Assembly (NCBI GenBank): GCA_027604185.1 | Contig: JADGKB010000019.1 | Coordinates: 1-64,000 of the forward strand | Reading direction: 5' to 3' | Length of the DNA: 64,000 nt | Source of the DNA: Boothiomyces macroporosus | Lineage: Eukaryota; Chytridiomycota; Chytridiomycetes; Rhizophydiales; Terramycetaceae | Part shown: positions 1-64,000 of the stretch, one piece after another | Numbering within the stretch: position 1 is the first letter of the stretch | How the letters are laid out: every line of letters begins with the position of its first letter | The notes under the pieces: generated by a model | What the model saw: the letters and a program-made list of their open reading frames with translations, nothing else | The model's database searches: none | Told to the model about the DNA's origin: nothing | Program-made: the position numbers and the translations under genes

Positions 1-520
1 CATGCTTTGGAAGCAAAGTTACATTGTCAACTACAGGGCCACAGCTTGTGGCAGTGGTGGAGGTGATTTCAATCACAGTCTTTGGGTCAGTGGCCTTGAA
101 TTCGTATACAATTTCGGTCCAGGCGCCCTTGGCAGTGTCGTGGTTGTACTTGAAGTTTAGTGGTGCGACTCCGGTAGCAGAAACATAGCCGGTCTTTTCC
201 TTTGGATCGCACAAATAGTTTGCATTCAAATAGAACGACAAGACGTACTTTTCCCCTGGGACCAGATGGACTTCTTGTTCAATGCCATAAGGAGTGTTGG
301 CACTTAGATCCATGGACCACTGGCCAGACTGGTTTGGCCATGGGCTGTGGTCCACTTCGAATTGAGTGCCGTGGCAGACTTTCCATGGAGCAATGGCTTT
401 TTCGTCAGTCAAGATACACCAAGACTCCTTACAGTACTGCGCACTGTGGTCTTCAAAGTCTCCGTTTTTCAGCAAATTGGCAGATACAGCAATAGCAAAC
501 AAGGCAGCGTTAAATAACAT
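1..520 (-). CDS. Secreted DUF642-like carbohydrate-binding protein, 3' end outside window
   Basis: The frame opens at 520 and runs off the window edge, so the C-terminus is missing. The first ~14 residues (MLFNAALFAIAVSA) form a short signal peptide, and the mature part starts NLLKNGDFED, the typical opening of DUF642 / choice-of-anchor proteins. A beta-rich region follows, with PWKVCHG, SGQWSMDLS and a SCGPVVDNVTLLP segment matching the end of the first galactose-binding-like fold. Known DUF642 proteins bind cell-wall polysaccharide; I infer secretion to the wall or outside. No intron is seen in the 173 codons present. It is divergent from the gene starting at 730, with about 210 bases between the two starts. 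Confidence 0.75.
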   Translation of the reverse strand, partial: MLFNAALFAIAVSANLLKNGDFEDHSAQYCKESWCILTDEKAIAPWKVCHGTQFEVDHSPWPNQSGQWSMDLSANTPYGIEQEVHLVPGEKYVLSFYLNANYLCDPKEKTGYVSATGVAPLNFKYNHDTAKGAWTEIVYEFKATDPKTVIEITSTTATSCGPVVDNVTLLPKH

Positions 521-729
521 TTTTACGGTTTCAGATTTCTACATGTTTTTATAGCTTGGTTTGTTTATGTTTACTTGGCAATTATTTATATTTTTGTACA
601 TGGAGATATAGCGTTACCGTGGAATCTATGTATATACTCATTGGCTTACAGTTGCTGATTACTGAGCAAGCGATTTTCGGACGCAGGATAATCGTGGTGT
701 GAGTTTGTATTTTTTCCAAAACCAATCTC

Positions 730-2259
730 ATGCCTCTTCCCACTCTCCTACCCTACCAGAAACAACCTCGTCTTTCTGTTAGTAAATCATTTGAAAATAT
801 CATTACAGGACACTCTACAGCAGAAGAGCAAGTTCCCACGCAAGGATTTGAGATACCGGAAAGTATAGTCGCTGATCAATACAAAAGATTTACAGAGATA
901 AAAATAGACCAGCAGGAGCTAGTAGAAAATTGCAAACTGAAGATTAATGAACTGGAGATTAAAAACAAGCAGCTTTCCTTAATTTTGCATGACTATGATC
1001 AAACTATACAATCACAGGCAAAGGAAATTAAAGTGTTGAAAGCGACTCTAGCTAACCAGGAATATGGCTCGCCAGCACATGTAAAAGTGTTGGTTTCTAC
1101 TATCGATGGATTACAACGCGAATTACACCGTCTACGCGAACAAAATTCATTATTAATGAATGAAGACAGCAAATACAAGAGTTCTAGCTTTATGAATCAT
1201 GCAAGGGAGAGTTCTGGAGAAAGAAAGAGCGTAAACCACTTGCAGTTTCAGTACAGATCTCCAAGAGCTTCTCCTACTAGATTAAATATACCTACTAGCA
1301 ATTTGAATGATGATCAGCACTCAATAAGTAACAGCCCAATCAGTAGAAAGTCGAACGTGTCACCAGCAGTTTCGCCTACTCACAAAACTGCAAGTACTTT
1401 TAGCAGTAGTTTCAATTCTCCTGTTTTACAAGAAAGAAGGGAATTTAGGAGTAAAAATGAAAAACAAGAAAACTTTTACCCGGCTTCTCATTTATTCAAT
1501 CAAAAGCTGCCTAGCCCAAGTCAGAGAATATCAAAGTATCCTTCTCCAAAGTCAGAACGATTAGGGGTCTTTGCGAATATGGGGAAAAGCATGGATAACC
1601 TAGATATTGATCATCAAAATGCTGTTTATTCAAATGGAAGCAGCCCTTCTCGTCAAATCCGTCACCCTGTAAATAGCGCTATAAGCAGAGAATTTAATTC
1701 TAGCAGTGTAAATAATCAATATAAAACCGCTACAAACCACACAAAATCCACGGGAATTAGCACCTTAGGCTATCGGGTAAACCATCCTTTCTCGAACCAG
1801 AAATTTGGTAAAGATCCTGGCGTAGATCAGGATAGACAGACTTTAAACACATTACATGACCAACTAAATTATATTGGACTATTGCTAGATCAAGATGCAA
1901 AGGATATAGCTCAAGCGAAGCCTAGGGCCGCGAGTCCAAGTTTGTCGGATAATTTCCAAACCACTTCCACTTACAAAAATCGGACCATTCCTTCCTCACA
2001 CTCAGTACCTGACCTCAAATACCGAAAGGGTAGTTCCTCGTTTGAACACCGCACCAGCATTTTGAAACAACCAAGCACGATTAAATCTCCCAAAACAGCA
2101 ACTGTTAGGATTAATCCTTCTCCTGTTGAGGAAAAATGGGCAACTTCGACAACCAGTTCCCCATCTCCTACTAAATCAATGCTGATTCAAGAAAGAGATT
2201 TGCTAGAACAAGAATTATTGGAGCAATACGAAAGAATGAGAAAAATGAATGGTATATAA
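730..2259 (+). CDS. Coiled-coil, Ser/Pro-rich protein of unknown function
   Basis: A single 509-codon exon that I do not recognise. Residues ~47-142 are predicted coiled coil, with long runs of Lys, Glu, Leu and Gln. Residues ~150-480 are low complexity, rich in Ser, Pro, Asn and Lys, with many SP and SPxR/K sites typical of phosphorylated scaffold proteins. A short acidic helix with Leu-rich heptads ends the protein. There is no signal peptide or membrane segment. A cytoskeletal or polarity scaffold is possible but is only inference. The gene converges on the DHHC gene, the two stops being about 24 bases apart. It lacks introns, unlike most neighbours. Confidence 0.7.
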   Translation: MPLPTLLPYQKQPRLSVSKSFENIITGHSTAEEQVPTQGFEIPESIVADQYKRFTEIKIDQQELVENCKLKINELEIKNKQLSLILHDYDQTIQSQAKEIKVLKATLANQEYGSPAHVKVLVSTIDGLQRELHRLREQNSLLMNEDSKYKSSSFMNHARESSGERKSVNHLQFQYRSPRASPTRLNIPTSNLNDDQHSISNSPISRKSNVSPAVSPTHKTASTFSSSFNSPVLQERREFRSKNEKQENFYPASHLFNQKLPSPSQRISKYPSPKSERLGVFANMGKSMDNLDIDHQNAVYSNGSSPSRQIRHPVNSAISREFNSSSVNNQYKTATNHTKSTGISTLGYRVNHPFSNQKFGKDPGVDQDRQTLNTLHDQLNYIGLLLDQDAKDIAQAKPRAASPSLSDNFQTTSTYKNRTIPSSHSVPDLKYRKGSSSFEHRTSILKQPSTIKSPKTATVRINPSPVEEKWATSTTSSPSPTKSMLIQERDLLEQELLEQYERMRKMNGI

Positions 2260-2283
2260 TTAACTTTTTCTAATATATTTACT

Positions 2284-3353
2284 TTATGCGAAATCTTTGT
2301 ATCTATTTGCTTCCTTCATTCTCTGTCGATATTCTCTGGTATTGATTTGCCATAAAAATGGACCTCTAGCTGCTCTGCTTTCATAGTAACCGTAAGTTGA
2401 AATACCAACGTACATTAAACGAGAATGAAAAACAGTCAACCAGCACATTCCGCAAGCACATCCCACTACTGCAGCTCCAAAAGCGAATACTCCAATAAGA
2501 GACCAGATGGAATTGCTAAATTGAACAGCTACTTTTCCAAATACTACATTAAATAGGAACTACTTGATTGGTTGTAATAGTCCAAGTCGACAAAGAATGA
2601 AACAAAGATGTATATGGAAAATATCCCCACATATACAGACAAGATCGTTGCTAATAAAATTGTCATAAAGAACGACTTGTAGTTTGCCTTGCCAATACAA
2701 GTCGACAGGAACTGACAGTGGTGGTCGTAATCCGCTACGCATTTGTTGCATGGCTTGCAATGTTTTGTTTGTGGCGACACAACCACTTGACAAATATTAC
2801 AAAACTTTGTGTCTGGATCAATGACTGGCACTCCTGTTGTCTTTATATAATTTACATTTCTTTGTACATTCGATTTAGTAACAACAGAGTCTTCTGTATC
2901 AACCGTGACTGTGTAGAGCGTGAATGTGATTTGGAGAATAAACAAAACACCGACTACGATCGAGCTTACACTGTAAATTGTTGGCTGTTCGATAAAGCGA
3001 ATAAATACTCCAAAATAAACACCTGCTCCTATTGCGTATAAGCTTAGCATCAGTGGAAATAAAACTGAATTAAAATATAGCTACTGTTGATGGGTCGATA
3101 CCAACCGTTCTTTCTTGACCAGGCATTGAATTGAACAGGGTCGTATCCGGTTGAACCAAAAAAGAAATCCTCATTGTAAACTAGATTAAACTATACGTAC
3201 CACACAAGGGCAAGTTCAACTTTTCCTTTGGGTTGAGAGCGTCTTTAAAGTTTTTCAGCGTATCGTTTGACTTCTACCATTAAGCGGATGTACCTGCGGA
3301 ATGACTCTGGACTCTTGCATAACGAGAATGGGCTCCAGTTCTTTATCATTCAT
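2284..3353 (-). CDS. DHHC-type palmitoyltransferase
   Basis: Five exons give 329 residues. The zinc-binding cysteine-rich domain around residues 160-205 contains [13 protein letters not shown] and the catalytic YDHHCQFL motif, followed by [11 protein letters not shown]. Two hydrophobic segments precede it (from [10 protein letters not shown]) and two follow. This is the layout of protein S-acyltransferases, which move palmitate from their DHHC cysteine to cytosolic cysteines of target proteins at ER/Golgi membranes. The four introns at 2544-2563, 3065-3084, 3181-3200 and 3274-3293 are each exactly 20 bases, and removing them gives an uninterrupted frame from the ATG at 3353. The start lies 75 bases from the divergent glucosidase II beta start, so the two share a promoter. 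Confidence 0.9.
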
Positions 3354-3428: not shown

Positions 3429-4732
3429 ATGCTTAGATTGTATCTTGCTGCCATTTGCGCAGCGCAGACTTATCAAATCAGAGGAGTGGAACAATCGCAA
3501 AAGGAATTATATGTAAAGAACTTTTCTTGTCTGGACAAGTCAAATCCAAATGCGGTAGTGAACGACGACTTTTGTGATTGCAATGATGGCAGCGACGAGC
3601 CAGGTTCGTTAGGATTAATTCAGGGACGTCGGCATGCTCGAATGGAAAGTTTTATTGCATTAATTTTGGGCATTTTCCCAAATATATCAATTCATCTCAT
3701 GTAAATGACGGGATATGCGGTAATCAACACTAACAAAGATTGCTGTGATGGAAGCGATGAATATCTCAAGCTTACCAAGTGTCCTGACACCTGCGGGGAG
3801 CTGCATCAGGCATATTTGCAGGAACAGGCACGATTGGAAGAAATTCGAAAACTGGGGGCTCAAAAGAAGATGGAGTTGATAGCAAATGCAAAGGACAAAA
3901 TCAAAGAATTAAGGAGAGAATTGAAAACCACAAAGGCACAGCTACCTCGTTTCCTGAAAGAGGCAGAAGCCGCCAAAAATAAGTTGGAAGCACTGAAAAG
4001 AAGAAAGGAGCCAGTATCAGAGTCTGGCAATTTCATTAATACTATTTGGGAAAAGGCTTCCTCTCTCTTGAAATTGGCAAATATTGAATTCACCAAAACA
4101 GCAGTCAAAGAGCAAAAAACCAATGAAATTGAAATTACAGAATCTCCAGCGGCTGCTGAATCTACAGATGAAACCCCAACTGCTAGCGCGCCAAATCCAG
4201 AATCTACTGCAGAACCAGTTGTAGAAGTTGATCCTGAATTAGAGAAAGGTTGGTGTTGATTAAATTTAGAAATTGAACAAGTTGAGCAAGAAGTCAATGA
4301 CATCAACAGAAAAGTTTCAGATAGCGAATCCAGGATTAAGCAAATCAGCGAAGAGCTCGAGCAAGATAATGGGGTAGATGATGTTTATCTTACCTTGCGA
4401 AACCAGTGCATTGAGCACACTGACGAGGAGTATCTTTGAATTAACCAAGATATACCTACAAGCTTTGTTTCTTTTCTGATAGTAAGCAGGGGTACACCTC
4501 TCTGGGTACATTTGAAAGTTGGGATAAGGAAGCTCACTCAATGTCCTACACCAGCGGGCAAACTTGTTGGAATGGGCCAGCGCGATCGACTTTGGTTCAA
4601 TTGCAATGTGCAACTGAAAATACGTTAATCTCTGTGTCAGAGCCAAACAAGTGTGAGTACTTGTTTATTGTGGGAACTCCAGCAGAGTGTATCATCACAG
4701 ATTCCGACCTTTCCGAAAAAGACGAACTCTAA
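3429..4732 (+). CDS. PRKCSH: Glucosidase II beta subunit (ER N-glycan trimming), ends KDEL
   Basis: Five exons give 407 residues. The start at 3429 gives a signal peptide ([16 protein letters not shown]) and the mature RGV. Two LDL-receptor-A-like modules follow ([11 protein letters not shown] and [10 protein letters not shown]), then a coiled-coil acidic stretch and a C-terminal MRH lectin domain ([31 protein letters not shown]). The protein ends in KDEL, the ER-retention signal. It partners glucosidase II alpha, presenting mannose-bearing glycans and holding the enzyme in the ER during calnexin-cycle trimming. Introns are 3604-3623, 3720-3738, 4249-4269 and 4430-4449 (19-21 bases). The second ends AAAG after a CTAAC branch-like site. 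AATAAA at 4732-4737 overlaps the stop codon. Confidence 0.95.
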
Positions 4733-4814: not shown

Positions 4815-6034
4815 ATGTACAGTCAATACGGTTCAATTAACAGCATATATGAAAATAACAATATCTCTACATTTGACAGGGCAAGGTTCCGGCAATATCG
4901 CCTGGAGACGTATCTACAAATTCCTCCCAGAAATCAAATTAAATATCCCAAGGACGTTGATGTGATAAACAAGAGTGCCAAATACTTTAAATTCACATAC
5001 TTTAATTCCAAAGATCCAACGAGCTTGGAGCATCCGCAGCTGCGAAATTTAATCTCCTTTCAAGACAACCAAGTCTATTACCTTCGTATGCCTTGTTAAT
5101 GTAGAAATGGATTTAGTAAAGAGGCTCAATACAATGACTAGAGAAACGTTTGTTGATTTGGATTTGAATGAGGAGAATAAACAGAATTTTAGGATATGCT
5201 CTATGGCGAGTAGCAAGGAGCTGCTGGTACTCGGAGGTTGGGGTTGCTAACACAGGTCTAACAGGGACATACTTGATAAAACGAATAGGCAGTAATGATT
5301 TAAGAGAGGCAGTGATATCAGACTCTCATAGCGCCATAACTAATCATCTTAATTTGGATAAAAGTAGATCTGGAGGTACTCGGACGCTAATCAAGCTTCT
5401 GTTTGTTCATTTTCTAGCAATGATCATATGCTGCGGATATTAGACTTGGATACCGAAAAGGTGGTTTCGTCATTTCCTTTCGAGTGGGCACCAAATTGCT
5501 CGGTGTTCAGTCCCGACAAATGCTTGCTTTGTGTAGTTGGGGACGATAGTTCTTGCAAAGTAATATCAGTGCAATCTGGAAAGGAGCTGATAAAACTGAG
5601 GGGTCATACAGGGCATAATTTTGCTTGCTCTTGGTCTAAAAACTCGCAGTATATTGCTACAGGGAGCGAAGGTACAACAATACTAAACCATGATTTAACT
5701 ACCCGGTTGTACGACATCCGTAATACTTCTAAACCACTTCGTGTCATTCCATGCTCTTTTAGTGCAGTTAGATCGCTCAACTTTGATCCAAATAGCAATT
5801 TCCTGTTAATTGCCGAAGCTGCAGATTTTATTCACGTCCTAGATGTGAATAAATCTACTATGGAACAAGAAATCGAAATATATGGTGATATAGCTGGGTG
5901 TTGCTGGTCGGTAACTGGAGAGCGTATATATATTGGCAATGCAGGTATTAGACTTAGTAACAACAGACATTACTTCTGGAGGATTAATCGAATTTCAGAA
6001 AAGAAATGTGATAATAGAGTCTGGCCTTGTTTAA
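4815..6034 (+). CDS. WD40-repeat protein of the C2A9.03 / plant transducin-like family
   Basis: 372 or 379 residues depending on one ambiguous intron. The N-terminal part contains the LRNLISFQDNQVYYL motif. The C-terminal part has WD-like repeats including CSWSKNSQYIATGSE, TRLYDIRN and a conserved LLIAEAADFIHVLDV segment. I recall this arrangement from uncharacterised fungal and plant WD40 proteins related to S. pombe C2A9.03. The molecular role is not established. Certain introns are 5086-5104, 5237-5255, 5376-5395 and 5945-5966. Bases 5672-5692 (21 bases, with TACTAAAC) look like a further intron ending in TG; because it is in frame and stop-free, reading through only adds seven residues. 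The gene converges on MCM10, with stops 38 bases apart. Confidence 0.85.
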
Positions 6035-6072: not shown

Positions 6073-7286
6073 TCAAATAATTTCTAATTCGCATTCAGAA
6101 TCACTATCAGGCTGTGATAGCTTTGGTTTCTTTTTAGGTATCTGGTGAGGATCACCTCCCATTTTCATCAAGGCATTAGGGCCAAACACATTAACACGAT
6201 CTACTATTAAAAGTAAGATTACTTTCATCTTCTTCAATTCCCATCATCTTTCGATACACCTTTCCCCCATGAGAATTTGAATTTAATATCATTGCACTAC
6301 ATTAAAAGATTTTACATTCCAGCCTTTTCTTTTTCAGTCAGAATTCGCTCTGAAGGTTGCTTTGGCGGATTATATATTTGTACAGAGTTTCCTTGAGCTA
6401 CTATCGTGTGTTTGCCAATCTGATAACTGGCATTTCTATCATGCTGCCTAAACGCTTTCTTTTTTTCGTGTTTATTTTCAGGATTACCAACTGTAAACAG
6501 TCTATCGCCTGTTGCGAATTCCTGACGCTTATTCCTAGCCTGCTGGTAAATGGCCACCTGGTGGGCTGCGCAATATTTTGCGGCTCTTCTATCCAAGAAT
6601 TGCTTGCATTGCTCCTTTCCACCACCGCTGCAAAAACCTAAATCGACCGATTTCCCAATTTCCATTAATAGTAAGGAACTAGTTAATGTGAGAGCCAGCT
6701 CAGCATTATTTTGAGTTGGTTTAGAAATGTCACAATTAAGAATCGCAATTACTTTTCCCAACATGTTGTCTGTCTGAACGCAATCGCTGCCCTTCAAAAA
6801 TAACCGTATCGTCCCGTTTGGTTGGAAATCAGTTAGGGAAAGGCATTGGATTTTCATTCCTCCGTCCACTGCGAATGGTTCTGTTTGTTCATATACCACA
6901 CCAATAGTCACCCAATCTTCATTAATATCTCCATCCTGCATTGTATTTTCAATGTTGTTAATCGGCACATATTTTCGATCATACATCCGTTCATCCAACT
7001 CCTGCTGATCAAATGGCATATCATGCAATCGTATTTTCGAGTATTTGTCTTGAACCATTTGACTGAAATCAACCTTTGAGGGTTGAAATTCAAACGATCT
7101 TATCCTCCGTTCCTTCTTGTGCTCTTTGACTTTAGATTCTACTTGGGTTTCTGTTTTCTGCTTGATTGCTTGATACTCTCGTTGCAGCATCTTTATCTTT
7201 TCTTGATACTCCAAAATCTCTTTTTTTATTACAATCATTCGATGCTGGTCTTTACTTAAATTGATTGGGGTCGCCGATTGCTCCAT
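6073..7286 (-). CDS. MCM10: MCM10 DNA replication initiation factor
   Basis: 391 residues in three exons. An N-terminal coiled coil (residues ~15-60) is followed by an OB-fold region and a CCCH-type zinc finger (LGFCSGGGKEQCKQF ... KYCAAHQ), the signature core of MCM10. The protein binds single-stranded DNA, MCM2-7 and polymerase alpha, and is needed to activate the replicative helicase. After the core, two introns (6297-6315 and 6204-6222, 19 bases each) lead into a conserved basic tail with FGPNALMKMGG and KKKPKL, a likely nuclear signal. It is shorter than the yeast protein (571) but has all core domains. Start chosen at the first ATG of the conserved frame. Confidence 0.9.
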
Positions 7287-7488: not shown

Positions 7489-10400
7489 TCAATCAAACGG
7501 CTTGGTTTTAGTAATGTAATCAGATAATGCAGTCTCGATATTCTTTCTCAACCATTCGCACGATTCTTGGCTGGGGCAGGGTATTACCCATCTTCTCGTT
7601 CCATACTTTGGTGCGAGTTGGATCTCGCAAATCCCAGGCTCGATTTTACGGATATCTTCAAAAGGAACCACGAATTCGGTTCTTCCTTTGTTGGTATGAA
7701 CAAGTAAAACATAGTTTTCGGTAATGATGCAGACCAAATCCTCCATTCGCATTTCCAAGTGACAGAGGTAAGACTCGTTAAAGTATTTACCACCTTCTAC
7801 TTCTCTAAGCCAATTTTGGCCAAGAGCTTCACGCATACTGAAAGGCTAATGTTAAAAGAAAATTTACCCTAAGAATTCCGTCTTTGCCAATATATCTAGG
7901 TAATCTTTGGCGTTCAATTTCATCATCAAATACAGTGGTGGTGTTTTTGATTCCTTCTGATACATTTGTAACCATATCAACTACTCCCGTTAAAGGTTTT
8001 GCAACAACGCCCAACAAGCCTTTGCCTACACCCATAAAGAAGCCTTCCACCCCTGCTTCTTTTGCACCTTGGAATGGTTGCGATACTAATCCTGTTACAC
8101 CACTACCGACTCCTCGAACAAAAGATGCGGCACCTGAAGCCATCCCTTGTCCAACATGCTTTGGTCGATTTCTTTGAATTAATATCAAACCTACCTGCCG
8201 GCAATTCTTCTCTTTTCTTGAAACTTTTGATCCATGGTCATGACAGATAATCCTTTTCCAATACTTCCAGTGAATTTAGAAAAAGTATCCGACAAACCAA
8301 ATACAGTTTTCTTTACCAAGCTCGTTGCACCTTTAGCCACTTCAATTCCAAATTCTTCTGGCTTGGTAATTTCAAATCCTTGGAGTGGCTCATAAAACAT
8401 GTCCTTTACACCACTTGCAACATTGCTGAATTAAAAATATCTTACTTGAACAGCCCTACTGGATTACCCAAAAAGTCTGCAGAGCCCACAAAACTGTGGA
8501 TTTGACTGTAGATTTCTCTCGAGTAGAAGAGTGTTATCAGTTCCATAAATTTCGCTTTGGAGAAGATAGGGTGTTGCAGCTCCAAGGCATGAAGTCGAAT
8601 AGGCGCATCGTGGATATTTCCAAGAGTCATTGTAAAGATGTCGTAAACTAAATTGATCATTCCGGTGCCTCTGGATCTTCCTTCCTTGTGCTTTTTTTGT
8701 TCAGACATACTAAACGACAAGTTCACTTGCACAGGCTGCAGTAAGAATGATTCAAAGTATAATCTGTCTCCGCCTTCCGCAGACTTGGGGAAAGTAATAG
8801 CTGCTGAAGTGTCACACGGCTCTGTGTAATTTATAATTTCGTTGCTTGAATATTTTGTAAAATCTAAAATTTCATTCAATAGTCCTTCATCCAGATCAAC
8901 AGACAATTCTTGCAGGAGAACCGTCAACCATTGGTAGTAATCTACTCCGTGAGAAGTGTCTTTTGAATGAGAAACAGTTGCAAAGAAGACAGGTCTATCT
9001 GCGTCTTTTTCAGTCGTATTCTTTTGTTTCAATACTGTAGGATACACAAATATTGGATTTGCAGAGCCTCCGATTTGGTTATCCACTTGGAACCATTTCA
9101 ACTTGATTGTAGAGATGAATTCGGTAATTGTATCCACCATTTGAACATCAAGGGTTTTTGCAGTCAAGTACAAAATTTCCCTCATATCTTTTGAAATGAA
9201 GGATATGCCAATACCTTCAATTCGAACTTTGTATGATGAAAGGATTCTAGAGAAATCATCTTTGCGCTGGAAATTCTCCAAAGTGGTACTGCTTCCAGTG
9301 CTTGAAATAGACATTCTATCCTTCTCGTCTCTATACAGGCTGCTCTTCTCGTCGTATGGAGTTAATTTTACCACAATAGTTGGACCTTCTGCAACCAAGT
9401 CGATTGAAATAATTCCTTTTCGATGGCCTTTTCCCTCAATAGGATATTTGAATGGCAATAGCGAACCCAACTGAGTAAGCTCAATTGGCCGCTGTCTGCC
9501 GTTTATGTCAATTGTAAGTGACTTGTTTTCAGCAGATGGGTAATCCCAAGCATACCACTGTTCTTCTCCTGGCACAACCGTATAGGTCTGTTCCAGCCCT
9601 GATTGAAAGTAGTTTACATCTACATTTGTGTAGTTGTCAATTCTAAATGGCCATTTTCCCTCTTCTTTCCAAAAGGATATGAACAACGTGGCCTTTTCCA
9701 GTGAAGTATCAACTCTGATTAGATCCGATGTGAGGGAACCAATTCTACCCACCTTCAAATATATACTTCCAACTTCTGTCAACTTGAATGGATTAGACCA
9801 CGTGCTGAGCATAATTGGAAGTTTGACACACAAATGTTCGGTGAGGTTTGCTAGATGTTTGAAATGCATCAAAGACATAGTTTCACCAGCTTTTAACGTG
9901 ATCGGCTTTGGATCTGGAGGTTGCCCAAATATCAAATCACCTCCAGTATTGTTCCGCAAAATAAATCGAGGAGTAAATGTTACCACTTTCGACATGTAAA
10001 ACTTGCCCAGTCCTTCTTGGATATCAACCCCAAGCACCACATCCTTTGTATGAGATTGATTGCCCAGAGTTATTTCATAGCTTGACCCCACAGCTTCGAA
10101 GCTTAAATCTCTGCTCCATTCAGTGTCAGCTATTCTTATCTGTGAGCGACTTCGGAGAGGTTCAAAGCTGGTGTACGAATACATCATTGGTAGAATATTC
10201 TGATTATCGCCAGCTTTCCCAGGGCAAGTGTGATGCTTTCCTGCTGGCCCAAGGAATGATTTTGTTCTGAATATTAAGTCTAACCCAGTCTTATTCAAAA
10301 TCAAGTATGGTGAATAAATGGAAACAGTTCTTCCATGAGTATTCCCGTCAAAATATTGAACTCCAAGATTGATTTGTAAATCATTTGAACCTTTTAAAAT

Positions 10401-37700: not shown

Positions 37701-37847
37701 ATGCCCAACCGTGCTTCAAATAACGAATTCATCCTTGATGGGCTTCATCTAAGAGGAGTGTACAAGCTGACTGTAAGAAGTCCGAAACTTTCTGATCTTG
37801 AATGTCATCTCTACCTTGGGTCGAAAAGTACCGTCCAGCATCATTAG
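37701..37847 (+). other. Upstream open reading frame overlapping the RFC3 start
   Basis: An ATG at 37701 opens a 48-codon frame that passes over the RFC3 ATG (37802) in another frame and stops at 37847. If the mRNA includes this ATG, RFC3 translation would be reduced. It could also be outside the transcript. Confidence 0.35.
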
Positions 37848-52365: not shown

Positions 52366-52934
52366 ATGAATTTCCTGCTTGCGACAACAGTATACTCTCA
52401 GTCAGTATGGAACTCGGCAGCAGGAGGAATCAGCACTGCCAATTATGCAAACGCAACAAGTTCACTCAACGTTACTACTTCTCAAGGGTTGGCATGTTTA
52501 CCTTGCACAGGATCGAGTATTGTATGGGCTGTGAACACCGCTTGTTATTGTGGATCTACTGCCCAGGCAATTACAAATTGCGTTGCTGCAAAGAATCCGG
52601 CATGGCCACTTGTTCCAATCGATCCTGCAGTGCTAAACAGGGATTGCGGTTCACCAACTGGTATGTATTCACTTACATAGAAAACCCAACTGCTTATACT
52701 GAGTGTATTAATGCTAAATCGCCTAAACAAGATCCAAATGCTAATCAAGAAGTTGCTGACTGTATTTCAAGTACCAGTGCCCAGGTATCTGTTGGTTCGG
52801 CCAACGGTACTACTGGCTCTTCTAATAATGTCACTGGAAGTAATCCTGGCTCTAGCACAACCCCTACCAAGAATGATGCCCAAGGAATGAGCATTTTCGG
52901 TCTTGCTATTATTGGTGCTGTCTTTTTCTTTTAA
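52366..52934 (+). CDS. Secreted, probably GPI-anchored cysteine-containing surface protein
   Basis: 182 residues in two exons (intron 52661-52680, 20 bases). A short N-terminal hydrophobic segment (MNFLLATTVYS) may act as a signal peptide. The body has eight cysteines (for example CLPCTGSS, ACYCGS, NRDCGS, YTECIN) and several N-glycosylation sites (NATSS, NVTTS, NGTTG, NVTGS). A Ser/Thr/Gly-rich linker leads to a C-terminal hydrophobic tail (MSIFGLAIIGAVFFF) typical of GPI attachment. It is not a family I can name. The cysteine spacing and glycosylated stalk resemble fungal and oomycete surface proteins. The start is fixed by an in-frame stop just upstream. Confidence 0.75.
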
Positions 52935-53583: not shown

Positions 53584-53701
53584 ATAAACCATTATAGATT
53601 GTATGTTTTTAATTTATGCATTCTGCCGAATTTGGGAGATGGGCTCCTTGAGGCTCCAATAGAAGAAATTATAAATGGCAAAGGAGGAAACAGGCACTCA
53701 A

Positions 53702-53844
53702 ATGAATTTCAAGATCCTCACTGCCCTTGCCCTCACTTCTATTGTAACTGCTGCTCCAGGCTTTTGTTTTTATGAAGGGTAGCTTTTTTCTAATGTAGAT
53801 GCTGTGTCCCTAAATGCACCAACCCTAAAGCAGGAATGAAATAA
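53702..53844 (+). CDS. Tiny secreted cysteine-rich peptide 2 (40 residues), paralogue of peptide 1
   Basis: Two exons joined by a 20-base intron (53779-53798). The signal peptide MNFKILTALALTSIVTA is followed by APGFCFYEGCCVPKCTNP and a four-residue basic tail. It shares C-x4-CC-x3-C and CCVPKCTNP with peptide 1, which lacks this intron. Conservation of the mature core with divergent signal peptides and tails suggests selection on the core. AATAAA (53840-53845) overlaps the stop. Function unknown. Confidence 0.7.
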
Positions 53845-54025: not shown

Positions 54026-55519
54026 ATGAAAAAGCACTTTGAAAAAATGGAACAAATCCATCTCATTCAAGAACTTGCCACAGAGCAAGTCCAAAAGCTT
54101 CATCTTATTTTGGAGTCAAACGTGTATGGAAAGCAATTCTTGCAATATGCGGATTTGATTGCATACCAAATCAAATCCTATGATTACGACTCAGTCCCGT
54201 GGAAGGATTTGGTTGTTGGATTCATCGTCACGATTTACTTGTGGGAAACGTATCTTGATTTGCGCCAACACTCACTCTTGAAGAGGAATATCATTCCACA
54301 AGCTTTGGCTGGGGTGATCACCAAGGAAAAGTTTGCACAATCCAATGCTTACAACATCGACAAGAGCAGATTCAAAATCATGTATCAAGGTATTTACAAC
54401 ATTGCGCAGATTATTGTCGCAATTCAATACGATTTGTTCCCAATCTGCTGGGATTACGCAGACCAATTTTTGAAACTAGCGTCTCTTCCTCATTCTGAAG
54501 TACTAATTATTAATACTAGATTCTCCAATCAATTGTATTTGCTTCCATTTTGATTTCTCTCAATACTGTTGTAAACCTTCCCATCCAGCTTTACTCTAAT
54601 TTTGTTATTGAAGAAAGACATGGATTCAACAAGCAAACTTATGGGCTGTTCTTTTCAGATACCATTAAAACCTTCTTTTTGACCTTAATTATCGGTATGC
54701 CTGTGTTGGCAGGGTTCTTGGCGGTCATCCAATGGGCTGGTAGTCTTTTATTTACGAATAGGTGAAAACTTTTTCTTCTACATCTGGTTATTCATGGTTG
54801 CCTTCCAAATATTCTTTATGATCATCTTCCCTACATTTATTCAGCCATTGTTCAACAAGTACACTCCTTTAGAAGGTACTTTACTACTGATGTAGATGGT
54901 GAATTGAAAACCAAGATTGACGCTTTGGCCTCAAAGTTAAAGTTCCCGCTCACTAAAGTTTATGTAGTTGATGGGTCAAAAAGATCTAGCCACTCTAATG
55001 CCTACTTTTATGGATTCTTCAACAACAAGCGTATTGTACTTTTTGATACTCTCTTGCAGCAATCTACTCACAATGAAGTCATCGCTGTTTTAGGTAGCTA
55101 TTGCTTAATAATTAGCCCATGAATTGGGTCACTGGTACCACAACCATGTATTCAGAAGATTGTTGGTTGCTCAAGCACACTTGTTTGTTCTCTTTTACTT
55201 TTTCAACTTTATCGTAAACCTGCAATCTCTTTACACCTCTTTCGGATTCTCTACCAGACCAATCATAGTTGGATTTTTACTATTCCAATTCATCTACTCT
55301 CCAGTGGAAACATTGATTGGATTCTTTATGAATGTTCTTTCAAGAAGGGATGAATTCCAAGCTGACGCATTTGCCAAGAAGTTGGGACACGCAAATGACT
55401 TGAAATCTGGACTGATCAAACTACAAATTGAAAACTTGTCCAACATGAATCCTGACCCGCTATACTCTGTATGGCACCACAGTCACCCGCCATTAGTTCA
55501 AAGATTAGCTGCACTTTAA
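54026..55519 (+). CDS. STE24: CAAX prenyl protease Ste24 (ZMPSTE24)
   Basis: 469 residues in five exons. The multi-pass membrane enzyme has ERHGFNKQT, the zinc-binding HELGH (completed across the 55094-55115 intron) and the third ligand in [11 protein letters not shown]. The C-terminus [12 protein letters not shown] is typical. It cleaves the CAAX tail of farnesylated proteins and clears stalled translocation products at the ER and inner nuclear membrane. Introns are 54500-54519, 54740-54761, 54876-54895 and 55094-55115. The start at 54026 is the first ATG; 54047 is a possible alternative. It converges on the ankyrin/oxygenase gene, with stops 37 bases apart. Confidence 0.95.
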
Positions 55520-57189: not shown

Positions 57190-58411
57190 CTAAAACATCA
57201 AAGTTTGTAAAGTTTGGACGTAGGACTGAGAAGTGAAATCAGTGTAGGATGGGTTAAAGACTCCATAGGTGTTGGTCTCACCAGTAGCGCGCTGTTCAAT
57301 TCCCTAACGTTAGTTGATATCTTACGGCTAATTCCCATACGGACCAATGTACTTTGGTTTCTTTGATAAATCGAAGGAGGAATTGCCACCATACGTTACC
57401 ATCTTGGCTATAAACGTTGGTTCCGAATTCTCCTAGCCAAATTGGGTGATCCTTCAACAGATAGCCCCAGTCGGTGTTGACAGCTTCTTTCCATTCTTCA
57501 TACGAGGTTGCTGTCCAGTTCTTGAAATTGTAATGCCATTCATAAGAGTGAACAGAATATACGACTTTGTTTGGAACATTCAGAGAAACCGGTTGCAAGA
57601 AAACACCTTGGAGGTTTTGCGGGCAATGCAAATGTTGCAAATCTGCAGTTCCGTCAAGGATGGAAGTAATCATAGTAGTATCCAACACAAACAGCCCCTG
57701 AATAAAGATGAGAGCATTAGGATTATGGCTTAAGACCATATTGCCTAGTCTTTCAGAGGCAGCTTTCCAATCAGTCTTGAGTCCGGTTCCCCAGGTTGGA
57801 TACTGGGTTTTAAATGGATTCAATACTTTTTTACCAAATAGGTCAAAGTAGTAGAGCGCAGGGCGGATTTCATTTCTTAAATCGACCCCAATTACCCAAG
57901 GATTATTGGCGTTTAACTGGACCATGGTACCCAACTGCTGCATCACCGCATCTTCTGTCCATCTTTCATTGTACCATAAACCATTGTCGTCGTCAGGTAC
58001 ACAGCACCATTCTGCATCCATCATGTGGTAGTCAAGGATAACCATGATTTCGTTTGCTGTCAAAACACTGACAATGTGCTGATAGATATCAATGGCGGTC
58101 TTTCCAATCAACGATGGGTTTGGTTTAAGCAGCGCTGCATTTACCACTGGATTATCTCTTACCATTTGTGCAGAAAACTCTAGACGGATACAATTGAAAT
58201 TGGCCTTCTTGATTAGACTAACAAGATAGTCTACAGACTGAAATTCTAGTCCAAAAGTAAGGAAATCTTGCATATGAGCACCACTCCAAGCTGAGCAATG
58301 AAGATGGACTGGGGTGTTTGTAGAATCAACAATTTGGTTTCCTGCTGTGCTAAGTGGTAGTACTATTGCCAACACTGAGCTAATCAATCCTAAAACGAAC
58401 TGGAATTTCAT
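57190..58411 (-). CDS. Secreted GH5 glycoside hydrolase (cellulase-like)
   Basis: 399 residues in two exons (intron 57304-57325, 22 bases). A signal peptide (MKFQFVLGLISSVLAIVLPL) is followed by a GH5 TIM barrel. The acid/base Glu is in GVDLRNEIRP and the nucleophile Glu in WLGEFGTN. IRLEFS, LDYHMMDAEWCC and VYSVHSYEWH are other barrel strands. Family members hydrolyse beta-1,4-glucans or related polysaccharides. Extracellular digestion of plant or algal wall material is a reasonable inference. The end GIEQRATGETNTYGVF is recovered only after splicing. Confidence 0.92.
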
Positions 58412-58729: not shown

Positions 58730-60335
58730 TTACCAATTATCAAAATTACCAAAGCCTGTCTTCTTTTTCTTTTGCGGGTGACTCTCAGCAGTCGATGGGA
58801 TGGCTGGTCTCTTTGCAGTCATGTATTTCCCAACTTCATCTGTGGAGGAAACAGTGCCTTTGCTGGCCATTATTAATGCTTGCTTTCTTTCACGCTGAAT
58901 TAATACTAATTACCTCTTTTTGTTTCTTTTGTTTTTCAGATTCCATTATTTCTTCCTTGTGTAGTAATTCATGGTAAGGATCTTTATATACAACAACTTC
59001 ATTGATGGTTATATCTTGTTCGGGTGCATCATTGGATTTAGTGCCTATGGCTTCAAGCGTATCTAACACTTCCATTCCACCCACCAATTTTCCAAACATT
59101 GTGTGCTTGTTATCTAAATGCGTCGCTTTTGAATATGTTATAAAAAACTGGGAGCCATTAGTATCTTTGCCTCGATTTGCCATCGATAAGCACCCTCTAG
59201 CATCATGCTTTAGCGAAGGATGAAATTCATCATGAAAGTTTGTTCCCCAGATACTTTTCCCGCCTAAATTAAAATCAAACTACCTGCACCAGTGCCGGTA
59301 GGATCACCTCCCTGTATCATAAAGTTTCTAATGGATCTATGGAATTTAGTACCGTTATAATATCCCTGCCATTAATAAAAATTACTTGTTTAGCCAGTTG
59401 AACAAAGTTATAGCAAGCTTTGGGGCATTCCTTACAGTACAATTCGAAATTCATTGTACCAAAGATAGTTTTAATACTAACGAGTGCCTTTTCACTCACT
59501 ACTCTCATTAGATACTCTTCGTCGCTAACATGGGCAGCAACTTGCTTAGTGTGTGGAGTGAAAGCCATGGAAGTGAGGGAGTAGGCTGAAAGACCAGTCG
59601 AAAAATGCGCTTGATTATGGGTCTTCTTTTCTGTTGCTACAAACGAAGGGGTAATATCCACCTTTTTCTCCTTCTTGGTAATCAAATCTTTAGATTCCAT
59701 TTCCTGCAATATTCTTGAAGTAGATCCCTTCATGTTGATACTATTTTCCAACTATATTAGAATTAATTTACCTTTGACTCTTCAACTATAGTAGCGTCAC
59801 TTTTGGTTTGTAACCCTTTCTTTACAAAATCAAACTCCATCATGTTCCGCTCTCCAATTCGATGCGGATCCTGAATCGTAATGATATCTTTGCGAGTGAA
59901 TTTTTCATCTGTCAGTAAATCTTTCCAGTTCTTGTTGTCAATGTTTAGCTTTTGGATGGCATCAAAACAGTACACGTTCCCACTGGTTTTGATCGCTACG
60001 ATATGGGTATTATTATTGAACACTTTGAAGGTAATTGGGCAGCAATACTCTCCATCGTTGTTTTTTGTAAAGTGTAGCTTGATCAAACTCTTTGGATCCA
60101 GAGTTTTCCCGTCGATAGGATTAGTGCCATATTTCTTGAGCCAAGGAACTATTGCCATCAAGTCAAATACTGTTCCGTCCACCGTACAGACTGGGTTTTC
60201 AAATGGCGTGAATGACAGAGAGCAGCAGTTGAAGGGCAGCTTCTTGTAATTCGTCTGCACCTGTTTCTTTGCTCCTCCAAATTCATGCTCCCACTCTGAA
60301 GCGGTAATGTACATTTTATCTGTCTTTTTCCCCAT
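58730..60335 (-). CDS. PPIL2: PPIL2-type U-box cyclophilin
   Basis: 508 residues in five exons. The N-terminus [20 protein letters not shown] and a U-box ([10 protein letters not shown] ... [13 protein letters not shown]) are followed by a cyclophilin domain ([26 protein letters not shown], [30 protein letters not shown]). The C-terminus ends [17 protein letters not shown]2 (CYP60) is a nuclear, spliceosome-associated protein with ubiquitin-ligase and proline isomerase domains. Introns are 59752-59771, 59366-59385, 59264-59283 and 58895-58913. It is divergent from NDUFS2, with 50 bases between the starts. Confidence 0.93.
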
Positions 60336-60385: not shown

Positions 60386-61786
60386 ATGTTTAAGAGATTA
60401 GCACGAATTCCCACAATTCCAGCCAGGTTTAAACATACAAGAACACAGACAATGCATCCGGAAACCTTTGGCGTTACCTCTGCCTGGTTTGTTCCTCCAA
60501 AGACCAAGCAAACGACAGAAAAAATTACAGTTCCATTCTATGAAGGTGAAGACCCAACCATGGATTCCTACACCTTGAATTTCGGTCCGCAGCATCCTGC
60601 CGCTCACGGTGTGTTGAGATTATTATTGGAACTTAAAGGCGAAATCGTTGTTCGTGCTGACCCTCACATTGGTTTATTGCATCGTGGAACTGAAAAATTA
60701 ATTGAATACAAGACTTACTTGCAGGCGCTCCCATATTTTGATCGTTTGGATTATGGTAATATGTATTTAATTCAGTATCAATGATGTGCAACGAACAGGC
60801 ATATTCCCTTGCAGTGGAAAAATTACTCAACATTGATATCCCACCAAGAGCTAAATATATTAGAACTCTGTTTGCAGAAATCACCCGTATTTTGAACCAC
60901 ATTATGGCTACCACAACCCACGCTTTGGATGTCGGTGCTTTAACTCCTTTCTTGTGGTTGTTTGAAGAAAGAGAAAAGCTAATGGAATTTTACGAAAGAG
61001 TTTCTGGTGCTCGTATGCATGCTGCCTATGTTAGACCAGGAGTATTTACATTTTTAATGGATAGGGTGTCAGTTTGGATTTGCCAATCGGACTAATGGAA
61101 GACATTCATATCTGGGCACAACAATATTCAGCTAGAATTGATGAAATGGAAGAGGCTCTCACCAACGGTAGAATCTGGAAAGAACGTTTGCGTGGAATCG
61201 GTGTAGTCACTGCCAAAGAAGCAATCAACAGATCATTCTCTGGAGTAATGTTGCGTGGAAGCGGTGTCCAATGGGATCTTCGCAAGGAACAACCTTACGA
61301 TGCTTATGCAGAAATGGAATTTGATGTACCAATTGGAACAAATGGGGATTCCTACGATAGATATTTGTGTCGTGTAGAAGAGATGAGACAGTCATTGAGA
61401 ATTATTGAACAATGCTTAAACAATATGCCAGGAGGTAGAATCAAGGTGGATGACCACAAGATTTCTCCACCTAGCCGTGCTGACATGAAAGAATCAATGG
61501 AATCTTTAATTCATCACTTTAAACTATACTCTGAAGGTTATAGCGTGCCACCTGGTGAAGTAATTAGAGTTAATTGTAGACTTATACCGCTATTGAAGCT
61601 CCAAAGGGTGAATTTGGTGTATATTTAGTTAGTGACGGCAGCAGCAAACCATATCGATGCAAAATCAGAGCTCCAGGTTTCTATCACTTGGCTGGATTAG
61701 AGTATATCTCCAAAGGGCACTTGTTGGCCGATGTTGTTGCGATCATTGGTACCTGCGATGTTGTATTTGGTGAAATTGATCGTTAA
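60386..61786 (+). CDS. NDUFS2: NADH:ubiquinone oxidoreductase 49-kDa subunit (complex I)
   Basis: 445 residues in four exons. A basic presequence ([20 protein letters not shown]) targets mitochondria. The mature protein has [58 protein letters not shown] and [13 protein letters not shown]. The C-terminus DVVFGEIDR matches the quinone-site end. It forms part of the peripheral arm near the quinone pocket. Introns are 60756-60775, 61042-61064 and 61560-61579. AATAAA (61785-61790) overlaps the stop. Its presence implies a complete respiratory chain. Confidence 0.96.
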
Positions 61787-61839: not shown

Positions 61840-62898
61840 ATGGAAAAGTACTCTGGATGGAGAGATGCAGGTACAGGAATACAGCCCTTTCTTCACCCTC
61901 AAGTAGCAACTGCTAACCCTAGCCTCCAAGGATTGAAAATGCTGCGTATCAGTTCGCAAAATACAATATAGTCGGTCCCATTATAGGATCAGTAAAATTC
62001 TGCTTGATACTGGTACTCGCCAGCATTATTTTCATTGCAGATTTCCTATCCCAGCTTGTAAATGATTTTAATATAGCTTGTTGTTCCAATCCTCATCCAT
62101 TCGTGGCAGCGAATATTCCATTTCCTGTTAGGAAGGCTAATTTTGCTCTTGTCTGGATTCTACTGGATAGATTCATCATCTGTACAAATCAAGAAGCTGC
62201 TCAAGCCTAATCCAGTTGGGAATGGTAGAACATTGATTATTGCAAACCATTCATCTTACTTGGATATCTTGTACTTTAATTTTCGGTAAGAAATAGTTTA
62301 CAAGCTTCTCTCCAATCTTTTTGCAAGTATCAAAGGAAGGGAAAGTTAGGGGAGTTTCTGGTTGGCAGATGCTTGGAGAATGCTCTCAAGTTTTGGATTT
62401 CACAGATGGGATGACATTAAAGGAATATTTGAAGGAAGATCGTACCAATTTGCCTCTGGTAATATTCCCAGAAGTAATCAGTTTGTAATTTAGGGAACAA
62501 CTTCAAATGGAAGAGGGGTGTTGCAGTTTCTCCCTGTCTTTGAAGAATTCAATCCTCAGGAATTCAATCTATGTGTGCAAGTCGTTGGTTTGAAGTATGA
62601 ATGGAGTGAGTTCTGTCCTTGCTACACTACAGGACACATGCTCAATCATTATTGGAGGGTCTTGAACCAGTTTTCAAACTCCTTAAAAGTACTGTACTTG
62701 GATCCCTCCCAAATTGGATTATCTAGTGATGCAAAGCAAGTTTACAACAAATCTGAAGGGTTGATTGGCTCACAGCTTTCCATGTATTTGGCTCAAACAT
62801 TGCGAACAAGAAAAGTTGGTAAGAGTGCGCATGATAAAGTAACCTTTTTGGACTACTTTAATGAAAGAGAAAATCCCAAATACCTAAAGACTAAATAA
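61840..62898 (+). CDS. PlsC-type lysophospholipid acyltransferase (Vps66/Loa1-like)
   Basis: 326 residues in five exons. The start MEKYSGWRDAGTGIQPFL matches fungal Vps66/Loa1-like acyltransferases. One membrane segment (VKFCLILVLASIIFIADFL) and a second hydrophobic stretch precede the catalytic NHSSYLD (HX4D) and the acceptor-binding FPEGTTSNGR. It transfers a fatty acyl group to lysophosphatidic acid or a related lipid at ER or lipid droplets. Introns are 61903-61922, 62058-62076, 62287-62305 and 62474-62493. AATAAA (62894-62899) overlaps the stop, which is 12 bases from the stop of the convergent LYAR gene. Confidence 0.9.
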
Positions 62899-62910
62899 AA
62901 TATGATTCTA

Positions 62911-63606
62911 TTAAATATTGATTTTAAGAGTTTCATCAACGAAGGATAAAGTCAAGATTTGGTCCAAGTTCACTTTGACATCCTTCTTTGACAGCTTCTT
63001 TTCGACTAATTCTTTGAATTCAGCCAAAGTCAATTCTGATTTCAAACGATTAATTCGAAATTTACCTTTTTCAATATAGATTTAACAGCTTTCTTTACCG
63101 CGTCTGATCCATCATCAGATTCCTTTTCAACCTTGGTTTTCTTTTCTGGTGATTCAGCTTTCTCTGACTTTCTCTTCTTTGATTTTTCTTTGGCAGGTTC
63201 AACTGTTTCTTTGACAGGTTCTTGCACTGGTTCTTGAGCCGTCTTTTTCTTTATTTGATCAATCAATGATTCAGACTTTATTGGCTTGGCGACATTTTCA
63301 GATTTGGTTTCTGGCTGAGCTTTTGGTTGATCCTTCTTTTTATTTTCAGTTTTCTAAAGTTGGAAAATAATTACCTTGCCCTTGTATAATGCACCTTGAT
63401 ACTTTTCAGCTTCTGAAATACAGGAATTGTGTTTCTTGTAGTCCTGTCCTTGGAATGAAGTTGAGCAGTCTGGATAAAACTATTGTTACCGATACAAGAG
63501 AATGTTGATCCGCATCTGTTATAATGTTGATCCAACTTTGGTTTCTTGATTGTTTCTTGGCAATAATCGCTGTATTAGCTATCCCATACCACACGAACGA
63601 TACCAT
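62911..63606 (-). CDS. LYAR: LYAR-type C2HC zinc-finger protein
   Basis: About 203 residues in five exons. The N-terminal zinc finger pair (MVSFVCDYCQETIKKPKLDQ, CGSTFSCIDCSTSFQG, YKKHNSCIS) is the LYAR fold. A Lys/Glu/Pro-rich low-complexity region follows, and a C-terminal basic helical segment (LTLAEFKELVEKKLSKKDV) as in LYAR homologues. These nucleolar proteins promote ribosome biogenesis. Introns are 63570-63589, 63470-63489, 63354-63374 and, by frame, 63043-63065. The last ends in TTTG rather than AG; without removing it the frame stops early at 63042. Confidence 0.85.
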
Positions 63607-63707
63607 TTGTTCTAAAAACAAAAAGAATTATAAAACGAATTTGATTGGATGAAAATTTTCCGTTGAGAGAAAAAGAAAAAATAAAAGTCAAAAATTTACT
63701 TTTTCAA

Positions 63708-63936
63708 ATGGTAACTGACAATTAATCCATAGCCAAAGGAAATCAAGGAAATCAAGGAATTCTTATCCACTGCTCGCCGTGCTGATGCCAAGGCAATCAG
63801 AATTCAAAAGACTGCTCAAAAGAGCAAGTTCAAGCTCAGATGCTCAAAGTACCTTTACACTCTTGTTGTCACTGATGCTCAAAAAGCAGAAAAGTTGGTT
63901 GCCTCCCTTCCACCTTCCCTTTTGACCAAGGCCTAA
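63708..63936 (+). CDS. RPL38: Ribosomal protein eL38
   Basis: 68 residues, the expected size. It begins [17 protein letters not shown] and contains [13 protein letters not shown] and [12 protein letters not shown], diagnostic of eL38 of the 60S subunit. The first exon is only the ATG (63708-63710), followed directly by a 22-base intron (63711-63732) and then CCAAAGGAA. The start is divergent from LYAR (63606), with about 100 bases between. The last 64 bases of the window are its 3' flank. Confidence 0.96.
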
Positions 63937-64000
63937 TTTCATGTTGCGAATATAATATTGGTATACAATGACTTTGTTTATGTTAAATATGGACTGAAGA

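What the first reader, a model, noticed from the sequence alone, without database searches (positions are those of the whole stretch)
1..64000. All ~98 inferred introns are 18-23 bases long, mode 20
I resolved about 98 introns in 30 genes by joining frames against conserved families. Every one is 18-23 bases, most exactly 19-20, with GTA at the 5' end and a TAAY branch-like site a few bases from the 3' end. After removal each gene length is an exact multiple of three and conserved motifs are restored (for example eS21 at the 87-residue yeast length). Introns this short and uniform leave almost no room between 5' site, branch point and 3' site, and suggest a spliceosome that measures intron length. 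Comparable introns are known in some nucleomorphs and ciliates; I do not know of a fungal-type genome with such a uniform class.
Basis: partly seen in the sequence, partly recalled or inferred. Interest (0 to 1): 0.88.

Follow-up and report, generated by a model that had tools for sequence, protein, structure and literature searches.

The report
Twenty-base introns across a chytrid genome
Genes of this chytrid fungus are interrupted by many introns that are almost all about 20 bases long, close to the shortest known, and the fungus carries an apparently normal set of the splicing factors looked for.

Summary
I recover 96 introns in 29 of 38 window gene models, all 19-23 nt, mode 20 (47 of 96). 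Without a length prior the same peak appears in the window plus 200 kb from 20 other contigs, and long introns do not exceed a decoy. Spliced proteins align without gaps to solved structures at 10 of 13 junctions examined. The closest NDUFS2 is from Boothiomyces sp. JEL0866 (Rhizophydiales), 418/423 identical. Branch A lies mostly 13-15 nt from the 5' end and is followed mostly by 5-6 nt. In the 150 of 168 introns with this core geometry the two distances are uncorrelated, though all 168 give -0.33. I read this as two separate distance limits, not a measure of total length. SF1, U2AF65, Slu7 and Prp18 are present, so the suggested losses of SF1 and U2AF65 are refuted. Two homology-backed introns end in TG; a 46-nt intron lies in Isy1. 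Comparable classes are known in heterotrich ciliates, mikrocytids and chlorarachniophyte nucleomorphs; the listings of my ten literature searches showed none in fungi. No RNA evidence was available.

The parts
2284..3353 (-). DHHC palmitoyltransferase gene; introns 2544-2563, 3065-3084, 3181-3200, 3274-3293
3429..4732 (+). glucosidase II beta-like gene; introns 3604-3623, 3720-3738, 4249-4269, 4430-4449
4815..6034 (+). WD40 gene; introns 5086-5104, 5237-5255, 5376-5395, 5945-5966
6073..7286 (-). unnamed gene; introns 6201-6222, 6297-6315
7489..16684 (-). 2952-aa VPS13-like gene (name recalled); 16 introns: 7846-7867, 8172-8194, 8426-8445, 10666-10685, 11195-11215, 11519-11538, 11638-11659, 11783-11805, 14588-14608, 15160-15180, 15339-15358, 15828-15847, 15917-15938, 16250-16268, 16548-16569, 16631-16651
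16729..17600 (-). phosphoesterase-like gene (name recalled); intron 17410-17429
19018..20066 (+). protein kinase gene (PKA-like, name recalled); introns 19468-19486, 19672-19691, 20038-20057, matching in position, phase and length three introns of the paralogue at 26263
20363..25768 (-). FG-nucleoporin-like gene (name recalled); introns 22052-22071, 22133-22155, 24689-24709, 25382-25404 and a GC-AG intron 24968-24988
26263..27386 (+). protein kinase paralogue; introns 26375-26394, 26564-26582, 26782-26800, 26986-27005, 27358-27377
27562..28660 (+). C2H2 zinc-finger gene (name recalled); introns 28325-28346, 28483-28503
28708..31903 (+). C2CD5-like gene; introns 28784-28803 (ends TG, not AG), 28854-28873, 28922-28942, 29373-29392, 30185-30206, 30378-30398
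31952..33248 (+). ArgJ-like gene (name recalled); introns 32529-32548, 32857-32876
33276..34726 (-). unnamed gene; intron 33349-33368
37122..37428 (-). small gene with its intron (37407-37425) directly after ATG
37802..38831 (+). replication factor C subunit; introns 37972-37991, 38582-38601
39133..40508 (+). presenilin-like gene (name recalled); intron 39303-39322
43424..44292 (+). mitochondrial carrier; intron 43740-43759
46321..49364 (-). Ctf18-like gene (name recalled); introns 46425-46444, 46680-46699, 46797-46816, 47343-47362, 47770-47788, 47902-47920, 48060-48080, 48332-48353, 49163-49183
49522..49829 (+). ribosomal protein eS21, 87 aa; introns 49543-49565, 49787-49807
51047..51883 (-). 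membrane protein gene; introns 51298-51317, 51497-51517, 51828-51846
52366..52934 (+). predicted secreted protein gene; intron 52661-52680
53675..53844 (+). doubtful 49-aa gene model; intron 53779-53798
   Evidence: weak
54026..55519 (+). STE24 CAAX protease; introns 54500-54519, 54740-54761, 54876-54895, 55094-55115
57190..58411 (-). GH5 cellulase-like gene (name recalled); intron 57304-57325
58730..60335 (-). PPIL2; introns 58895-58913, 59264-59283, 59366-59385, 59752-59771
60452..61786 (+). NDUFS2 (the true start is probably 22 codons upstream, judging by P0121); introns 60756-60775, 61042-61064, 61560-61579
61840..62898 (+). acyltransferase; introns 61903-61922, 62058-62076, 62286-62304, 62474-62493
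63042..63606 (-). zinc-finger protein gene (name recalled); introns 63354-63374, 63470-63489, 63570-63589
63708..63936 (+). ribosomal protein eL38; intron 63711-63732 directly after ATG

Best explanation
These are U2-type spliceosomal introns that have shrunk to about 20 nt across the genome of a chytrid close to Boothiomyces (Rhizophydiales, Terramycetaceae). Each holds only a GTA(A/T) donor, usually 13-15 nt up to the branch A of a (C/T)TAAY-like site, and 5-6 nt on to (T/C)AG, with no room for a separate pyrimidine tract. My mechanism, inferred: a largely ordinary spliceosome removes them. The floor of 13 nt before branch A is about the sum of the snRNA footprints on the donor (about 6 nt) and on the branch helix (about 7 nt; both recalled), with no spare linker. 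The 3' site is taken at a near-fixed short reach from branch A, which also lets a few non-AG ends (TG) work. A deletion bias pushes introns down to these two independent floors. Shown: sequence anatomy, frame and homology support, length and distance distributions, presence of the factors named. Inferred: excision as such, the branch sites, the two-floor mechanism, the deletion bias.
For: Length peak without length prior (decoy). String-level excess in the window and in 20 other stretches. Gapless protein alignments at 10 of 13 junctions in NDUFS2, PPIL2, STE24 and eS21. NDUFS2 418/423 identical, without gaps, to the deposited Boothiomyces protein. Removing five 19-21 nt introns lifts the U2AF large-subunit gene from 230.7 bits (unspliced, below the family cut-off) to 342.8 bits (above it). 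U1 (just under its cut-off), U2 and U6 RNAs, Slu7, Prp18, SF1, Isy1, Cir_N/Cwc25, Yju2. Distances in 168 introns: 13/14/15 nt before A in 67/61/20 and none at 11-12; 5/6 nt after A in 68/63; no correlation in the core of 150 (Spearman -0.03, p=0.73), nor when only one side is restricted (-0.04, n=151, either side). Two kinase paralogues (201/329 identical) share three intron positions and phases with lengths 19/19, 20/20, 20/20, though two of the three pairs match at only 12/20 and 11/20 bases.
Against: No RNA reads were available; all lengths rest on gene models, and the 96 and 379 counts come from a run with a length prior (the tests quoted do not). Over all 168 introns the two distances correlate negatively (Spearman -0.33), and so, weakly, do the 123 with exactly one TAAY (-0.19, p=0.03); calling the outliers mis-placed branch sites is my reading, not a measurement. 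U5 RNA was not found (the tool says this is no proof). A 46-nt intron lies in Isy1, and 3 of 10 apparent long introns in the sample stay undecided, so the class is dominant, not universal. Intron length differs between loci (permutation p=0.004), which a purely fixed geometry does not predict.
Confidence: 0.86

Rival explanations
1. The spliceosome measures total intron length: a longer first part is balanced by a shorter second part.
For: Narrow total length (19-23 nt) and equal lengths at three paralogous positions. Negative correlation of the two parts over all 168 introns (-0.33) and over the 123 with exactly one TAAY (-0.19), and -0.66 (Pearson) in 257 annotated introns.
Against: A mis-placed branch site gives a negative correlation by itself, since the two parts add up to the length. 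Setting aside the 17 or 18 introns with an outlying site removes it (-0.03 to -0.04), and the variances then add up.
Confidence: 0.1
2. The segments are not introns but programmed frameshift sites, retained inserts or assembly errors.
For: No RNA data; many are as short as small indels.
Against: Shared donor, branch and acceptor motifs at fixed spacing in stretches of 21 contigs; gapless restored proteins; U2AF score raised by their removal; snRNAs and splicing factors present.
Confidence: 0.02
3. Selection against silent retention (NMD, as in Paramecium; recalled) shapes the lengths, so multiples of three are avoided.
For: In the window alone, 21-nt strings looked scarce (8 against 40 at 20 nt and 18 at 22 nt).
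Against: Elsewhere 21 nt is common (59 strings in 20 stretches). 21-nt introns carry in-frame stops as often as random phase gives (58 of 83 against 56.3 expected).
Confidence: 0.06
4. Reduced, specialised spliceosome as in microsporidia or mikrocytids, having lost branch-site and 3'-site factors.
For: Lineages with 16-17 nt introns and few identified factors exist (PMC10245619, section 7 read). U5 RNA was not found here.
Against: All seven protein families sought were found: U2AF large subunit, Slu7, Prp18, SF1, Isy1, Cir_N/Cwc25, Yju2.
Confidence: 0.03

Closest known systems
Stentor coeruleus (heterotrich ciliate) introns, 15-16 nt (PMC9505925: passages and section 5 read)
   Same: Genome-wide, narrow length class; GT-AG; branch A at a nearly fixed place (10th base of 15-nt introns); 5 nt after A; snRNAs and U2AF2/U2AF1 listed as present.
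   Different: Here 19-23 nt, A mostly at base 14-16. In Stentor the Cwc25 N-terminal plug is reported as distinct; here its first 14 residues are the same as in human. Isy1's N-terminus, reported non-conserved in Stentor, also fails to align here (match begins at residue 38), but that gene model is uncertain.
Mikrocytos mackini and Paramikrocytos canceri introns, 16-17 nt (PMC10245619: passages and section 7 read)
   Same: Very uniform ultrashort introns with conserved sequence.
   Different: Mikrocytids are reduced parasites with 17-19 spliceosomal proteins identified and, in M. mackini, 224 introns; here about 1.7 introns per kb of predicted coding sequence and the factors tested are present.
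Chlorarachniophyte nucleomorph introns, 18-21 nt (as cited in PMC10245619, section 7)
   Same: Nearly the same length range.
   Different: Relic endosymbiont nucleus; here a 15.2 Mb assembly of a fungus.
Paramecium and Nyctotherus introns, around 25 nt (PMC5014332: search listing only)
   Same: Only ultrashort introns.
   Different: No sign here of the multiple-of-three effect reported for Paramecium (effect recalled; test).
Other fungi (Lim et al. 2021, PMC8476143: passages read)
   Same: Fungal kingdom; chytrids are intron-rich there.
   Different: A short-intron example quoted there is Cryptococcus neoformans with a mean of 63 bp.

Membership tests
Genome-wide ultrashort U2-type intron class (Stentor, mikrocytids, chlorarachniophyte nucleomorph) | Introns nearly all within a narrow range of about 15-25 nt | tested here: met
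   96 of 96 in the window at 19-23 nt; in 264 kb of a 15.2 Mb assembly 379 of 389 at 17-24 with a length prior, 235 of 301 without, the remainder not exceeding a decoy
Genome-wide ultrashort U2-type intron class (Stentor, mikrocytids, chlorarachniophyte nucleomorph) | GT-AG ends and a branch A at near-fixed position | tested here: met
   95 of 96 end AG, 95 of 96 start GT; 13-15 nt before the called A in 148 of 168
Genome-wide ultrashort U2-type intron class (Stentor, mikrocytids, chlorarachniophyte nucleomorph) | Excision shown in RNA | not testable with these tools
   No reads; only a deposited protein that omits the segments, itself probably a prediction
Genome-wide ultrashort U2-type intron class (Stentor, mikrocytids, chlorarachniophyte nucleomorph) | Canonical snRNAs present | tested here: inconclusive
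   U1 68.8 bits (cut-off 69.5), U2 twice and U6 over cut-off; U5 not found; U4 not tested
Reduced-spliceosome type (mikrocytids, microsporidia) | Loss of most non-core splicing factors | tested here: not met
   seven of seven protein families sought were found: with 95, 49, 50, 51, 74, 75, 76
Stentor-type modified branching factors | Cwc25 N-terminal plug changed | tested here: not met
   First 14 residues identical to human CWC25
Stentor-type modified branching factors | Isy1 N-terminus diverged | tested here: inconclusive
   Alignment to human starts at residue 38; the first exons of the model are uncertain
Paramecium-type NMD-shaped introns | Deficit of stop-free 3n introns | tested here: not met
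   58 of 83 with stop, 56.3 expected

The most novel reading that the evidence does not exclude
A fungus with an otherwise ordinary spliceosome has driven its introns to the physical floor of the machine. Both catalytic partners are then chosen mainly by distance (13-15 nt donor to branch, 5-6 nt branch to end), so that even the AG rule relaxes to NG in a small fraction of introns. This would be an independent origin of ultrashort introns, without genome relic, ciliate biology or spliceosome reduction.
Probability: 0.48. Interest if true: 0.82.

Novelty: new member of a known kind. Interest (0 to 1): 0.7.

Why it matters
The ultrashort intron classes I could find in print sit in ciliates, relic nuclei or highly reduced parasites, where odd biology can be blamed. 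Here the same state appears in a chytrid in which all seven splicing-protein families sought are present, including a human-like Cwc25 plug. That argues that a standard spliceosome can work at about 13 nt between donor and branch, and it offers a fungal system (relatives are kept in culture collections; recalled) to test what sets the minimum intron. A practical point: deposited proteins of its relatives show errors at such introns. One drops 18 residues of an exon and carries seven extra residues at the next intron site, as if a 21-nt intron had been translated; another drops 18 residues beside the TG intron.

Tried and rejected
A length-free codon-only gene finder was too weak (mean 0.10 nats per codon; 0.13 with a Markov model): real and decoy termini gave similar intron numbers (42 and 35 against 25-38), though only the real ones peaked at 20-23 nt. 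Adding donor and branch motifs solved this. Two decoy branch motifs overlapped the real one and were uninformative; ATAY was clean. An over-permissive penalty gave 1689 long introns, which I take for spurious, and was dropped. A length-measuring spliceosome, NMD shaping and factor loss were considered and rejected as above. Of 22 non-GT-AG calls among 396 I accept four: GT-TG in the C2CD5-like gene, GT-TG in SMC2 of L021, GC-AG in the window nucleoporin (frame and repeat pattern) and GC-AG in a kinase of L006 (frame and kinase motif recalled). GT-CG in L015 is plausible only. The rest are unsupported, several clearly misplaced ends; the L009 TG case coincides with a stop codon. The TG cases could still be base errors in the assembly. 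The deposited Boothiomyces protein P0241 resumes at the same residue, which may mean AG there in that strain. U5 RNA was not found. 18S rRNA was asked twice and not answered, so the organism is placed by protein similarity only.
Full report
What is there. The window is bases 1-64000 of contig 19 of an unnamed assembly of 15,203,306 bases in 216 contigs. GC is about 39%. I wrote a small gene finder with a periodic Markov coding model and allowed GT...AG introns of any length from 8 to 200. With only a reward for GTA and for TAAY near the end, it found, in the window plus 20 stretches of 10 kb from other contigs, 44/72/30/16/6 introns at 19/20/21/22/23 nt, one of 18, one of 11, none of 12-17, and mostly none to two per length beyond. 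With learned donor, branch and acceptor profiles and still no length prior, 235 introns fell at 17-24 nt and 66 over 25-200 nt; at a laxer penalty 291 and 111. With a flat branch-distance prior the split was 201 to 57, while reversed decoy motifs gave 47 to 105. So the short class is strong and no separate long class shows. All this covers 264 kb of the 15.2 Mb.

String counts free of any gene model agree: for window and stretches together, GTA...TAAY..AG strings number 90/122/67/41 at 19/20/21/22 nt against 26/19/21/19 expected from shuffling. In the window the 21-nt excess is small (8 strings), elsewhere it is large (59 in 200 kb). Intron lengths differ between loci (p=0.004) and between genes (p=0.015) in 1000 permutations. 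I cannot explain this.

Window annotation. Thirty-eight gene models, 29 with introns, 96 introns: 15/47/15/13/6 at 19-23 nt; this run used a length prior. The models are not exhaustive. The finder first bridged two places with 53 and 108 nt. Both resolve to short introns. At 24968-24988 (minus strand) GCAAGT...TTAG, a GC-AG intron, restores the FG-repeat frame. At 28784-28803 a 20-nt intron ending in TTG restores LTDAYVEVKF of a C2CD5-like protein; the residues on both sides of the join, LT|DAYVEVKF or close variants, run without a gap in eight of the nine relatives aligned. The ninth, the deposited Boothiomyces protein, lacks the 18 residues upstream.

Proteins across junctions. NDUFS2 aligns gapless over its three junctions to 8ba0_D. 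PPIL2 is gapless at two of four, STE24 at three of four, and eS21 at two of two with the 87-residue length of its best match. That is 10 of 13; the other three lie in or beside gapped, poorly conserved stretches. All eight spliced proteins given to Pfam hit a family. The U2AF large-subunit gene scores 230.7 bits unspliced and 342.8 bits (cut-off 310.3) once five introns of 19-21 nt are removed.

Organism. PPIL2's closest protein is from Terramyces sp. JEL0728, 87% identical, then Globomyces pollinis-pini at 60%. NDUFS2's closest is Boothiomyces sp. JEL0866, 418/423 identical without gaps, and that strain's C2CD5-like protein is 896/1022 identical, so the window is a related but different strain or species. 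Both genera are Terramycetaceae, Rhizophydiales, Chytridiomycota.

Geometry. In 168 introns of 15-26 nt from the strict length-free run, the best-scoring branch A is preceded by 13, 14 or 15 nt in 67, 61 and 20 cases, by 11 or 12 in none, and followed by 4, 5, 6 or 7 nt in 8, 68, 63 and 7. In the core of 150 the two distances are uncorrelated (Spearman -0.03, p=0.73) and their variances (0.62, 0.65) add to that of the length (1.23); restricting only one side gives -0.04 (n=151 either way). Against this, all 168 give -0.33, the 123 with exactly one TAAY give -0.19 (p=0.03), and 257 annotated introns give a Pearson r of -0.66. In these sets the correlation comes with a few introns whose called branch lies 7-10 nt from the 5' end; several of them carry a second candidate at 13-15 nt (list), and a mis-placed branch makes such a correlation by itself. 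I therefore favour two separate limits, but mapped branch points are needed. Two kinase paralogues in the window, 201/329 identical, share three intron positions with the same phase and the same lengths (19, 20, 20 nt); the pairs match at 18/19, 12/20 and 11/20 bases.

Machinery. U6 (62.2 bits), U1 (68.8 bits, full length, just below its cut-off of 69.5) and two U2 genes (142.2 and 135.4 bits) are present. By eye on the printed sequence the U1 5' end reads ATACTTACCTG and U2 has GTGTAGTATCTG, both as in other eukaryotes (recalled). U5 was not found. U2AF large subunit, Slu7, Prp18, SF1, Isy1, a Cir_N/Cwc25 gene and Yju2 are present, and several are themselves cut by introns of 19-23 nt. The first 14 residues of Cwc25 are identical to human, whereas a distinct N-terminal plug was proposed to matter in Stentor (PMC9505925, passages). 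Isy1 aligns to human only from residue 38, but its first exons are not settled.

Limits to uniformity. Isy1 holds a 46-nt intron with a GTAAGT donor, supported by gapless alignment to human around it. Of ten introns over 24 nt among 389 in the annotated sample, five are better read as 20-21 nt introns with unusual ends (one of them, GT-CG in L015, only plausible), one as a back-to-back pair of 21 and 22 nt (or a single one of 43), one is 25 nt, and three are undecided.

Novelty. Mikrocytids have 16-17 nt introns, heterotrich ciliates 15-16, chlorarachniophyte nucleomorphs 18-21 (PMC10245619, section 7). For fungi, a survey of 644 genomes quotes Cryptococcus neoformans, mean 63 bp, as relatively short (PMC8476143, passages). 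The listings of my ten searches show no paper on such introns in chytrids; the lists are capped, and that library lacks most subscription journals and all preprints. I therefore file this as a new, apparently independently evolved member of a known kind.

Noticed in passing
L009:89-131: 43 nt that read as two ultrashort introns (21 + 22 nt) directly back to back, with no exon between them.
   Followed up: partly
L021:3825-3845 (minus strand): SMC2 intron of 21 nt ending in TTG instead of AG; the spliced protein aligns without gap to solved Smc2 chains.
   Followed up: partly
L037 / L039 (contig 39), Isy1: A 46-nt intron with a GTAAGT donor, the clearest exception to the short class; the first exons of this gene are also unclear.
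   Followed up: partly
L041 and L042: The Cwc25 locus is present on two contigs (49 and 100), identical over 3111 bases: a recent duplication or a redundant contig.
   Followed up: no
window 63711-63732 and 37407-37425: Introns lying directly after the start codon ATG, in eL38 and in a small gene.
   Followed up: no
all loci: Mean intron length differs between loci (19.4 to 20.7 nt) more than chance gives (p=0.004); cause unknown.
   Followed up: no
window 58730-60335: The deposited Terramyces PPIL2 protein drops 18 residues of one exon and carries seven extra residues at the next intron site, as if a 21-nt intron had been translated.
   Followed up: partly
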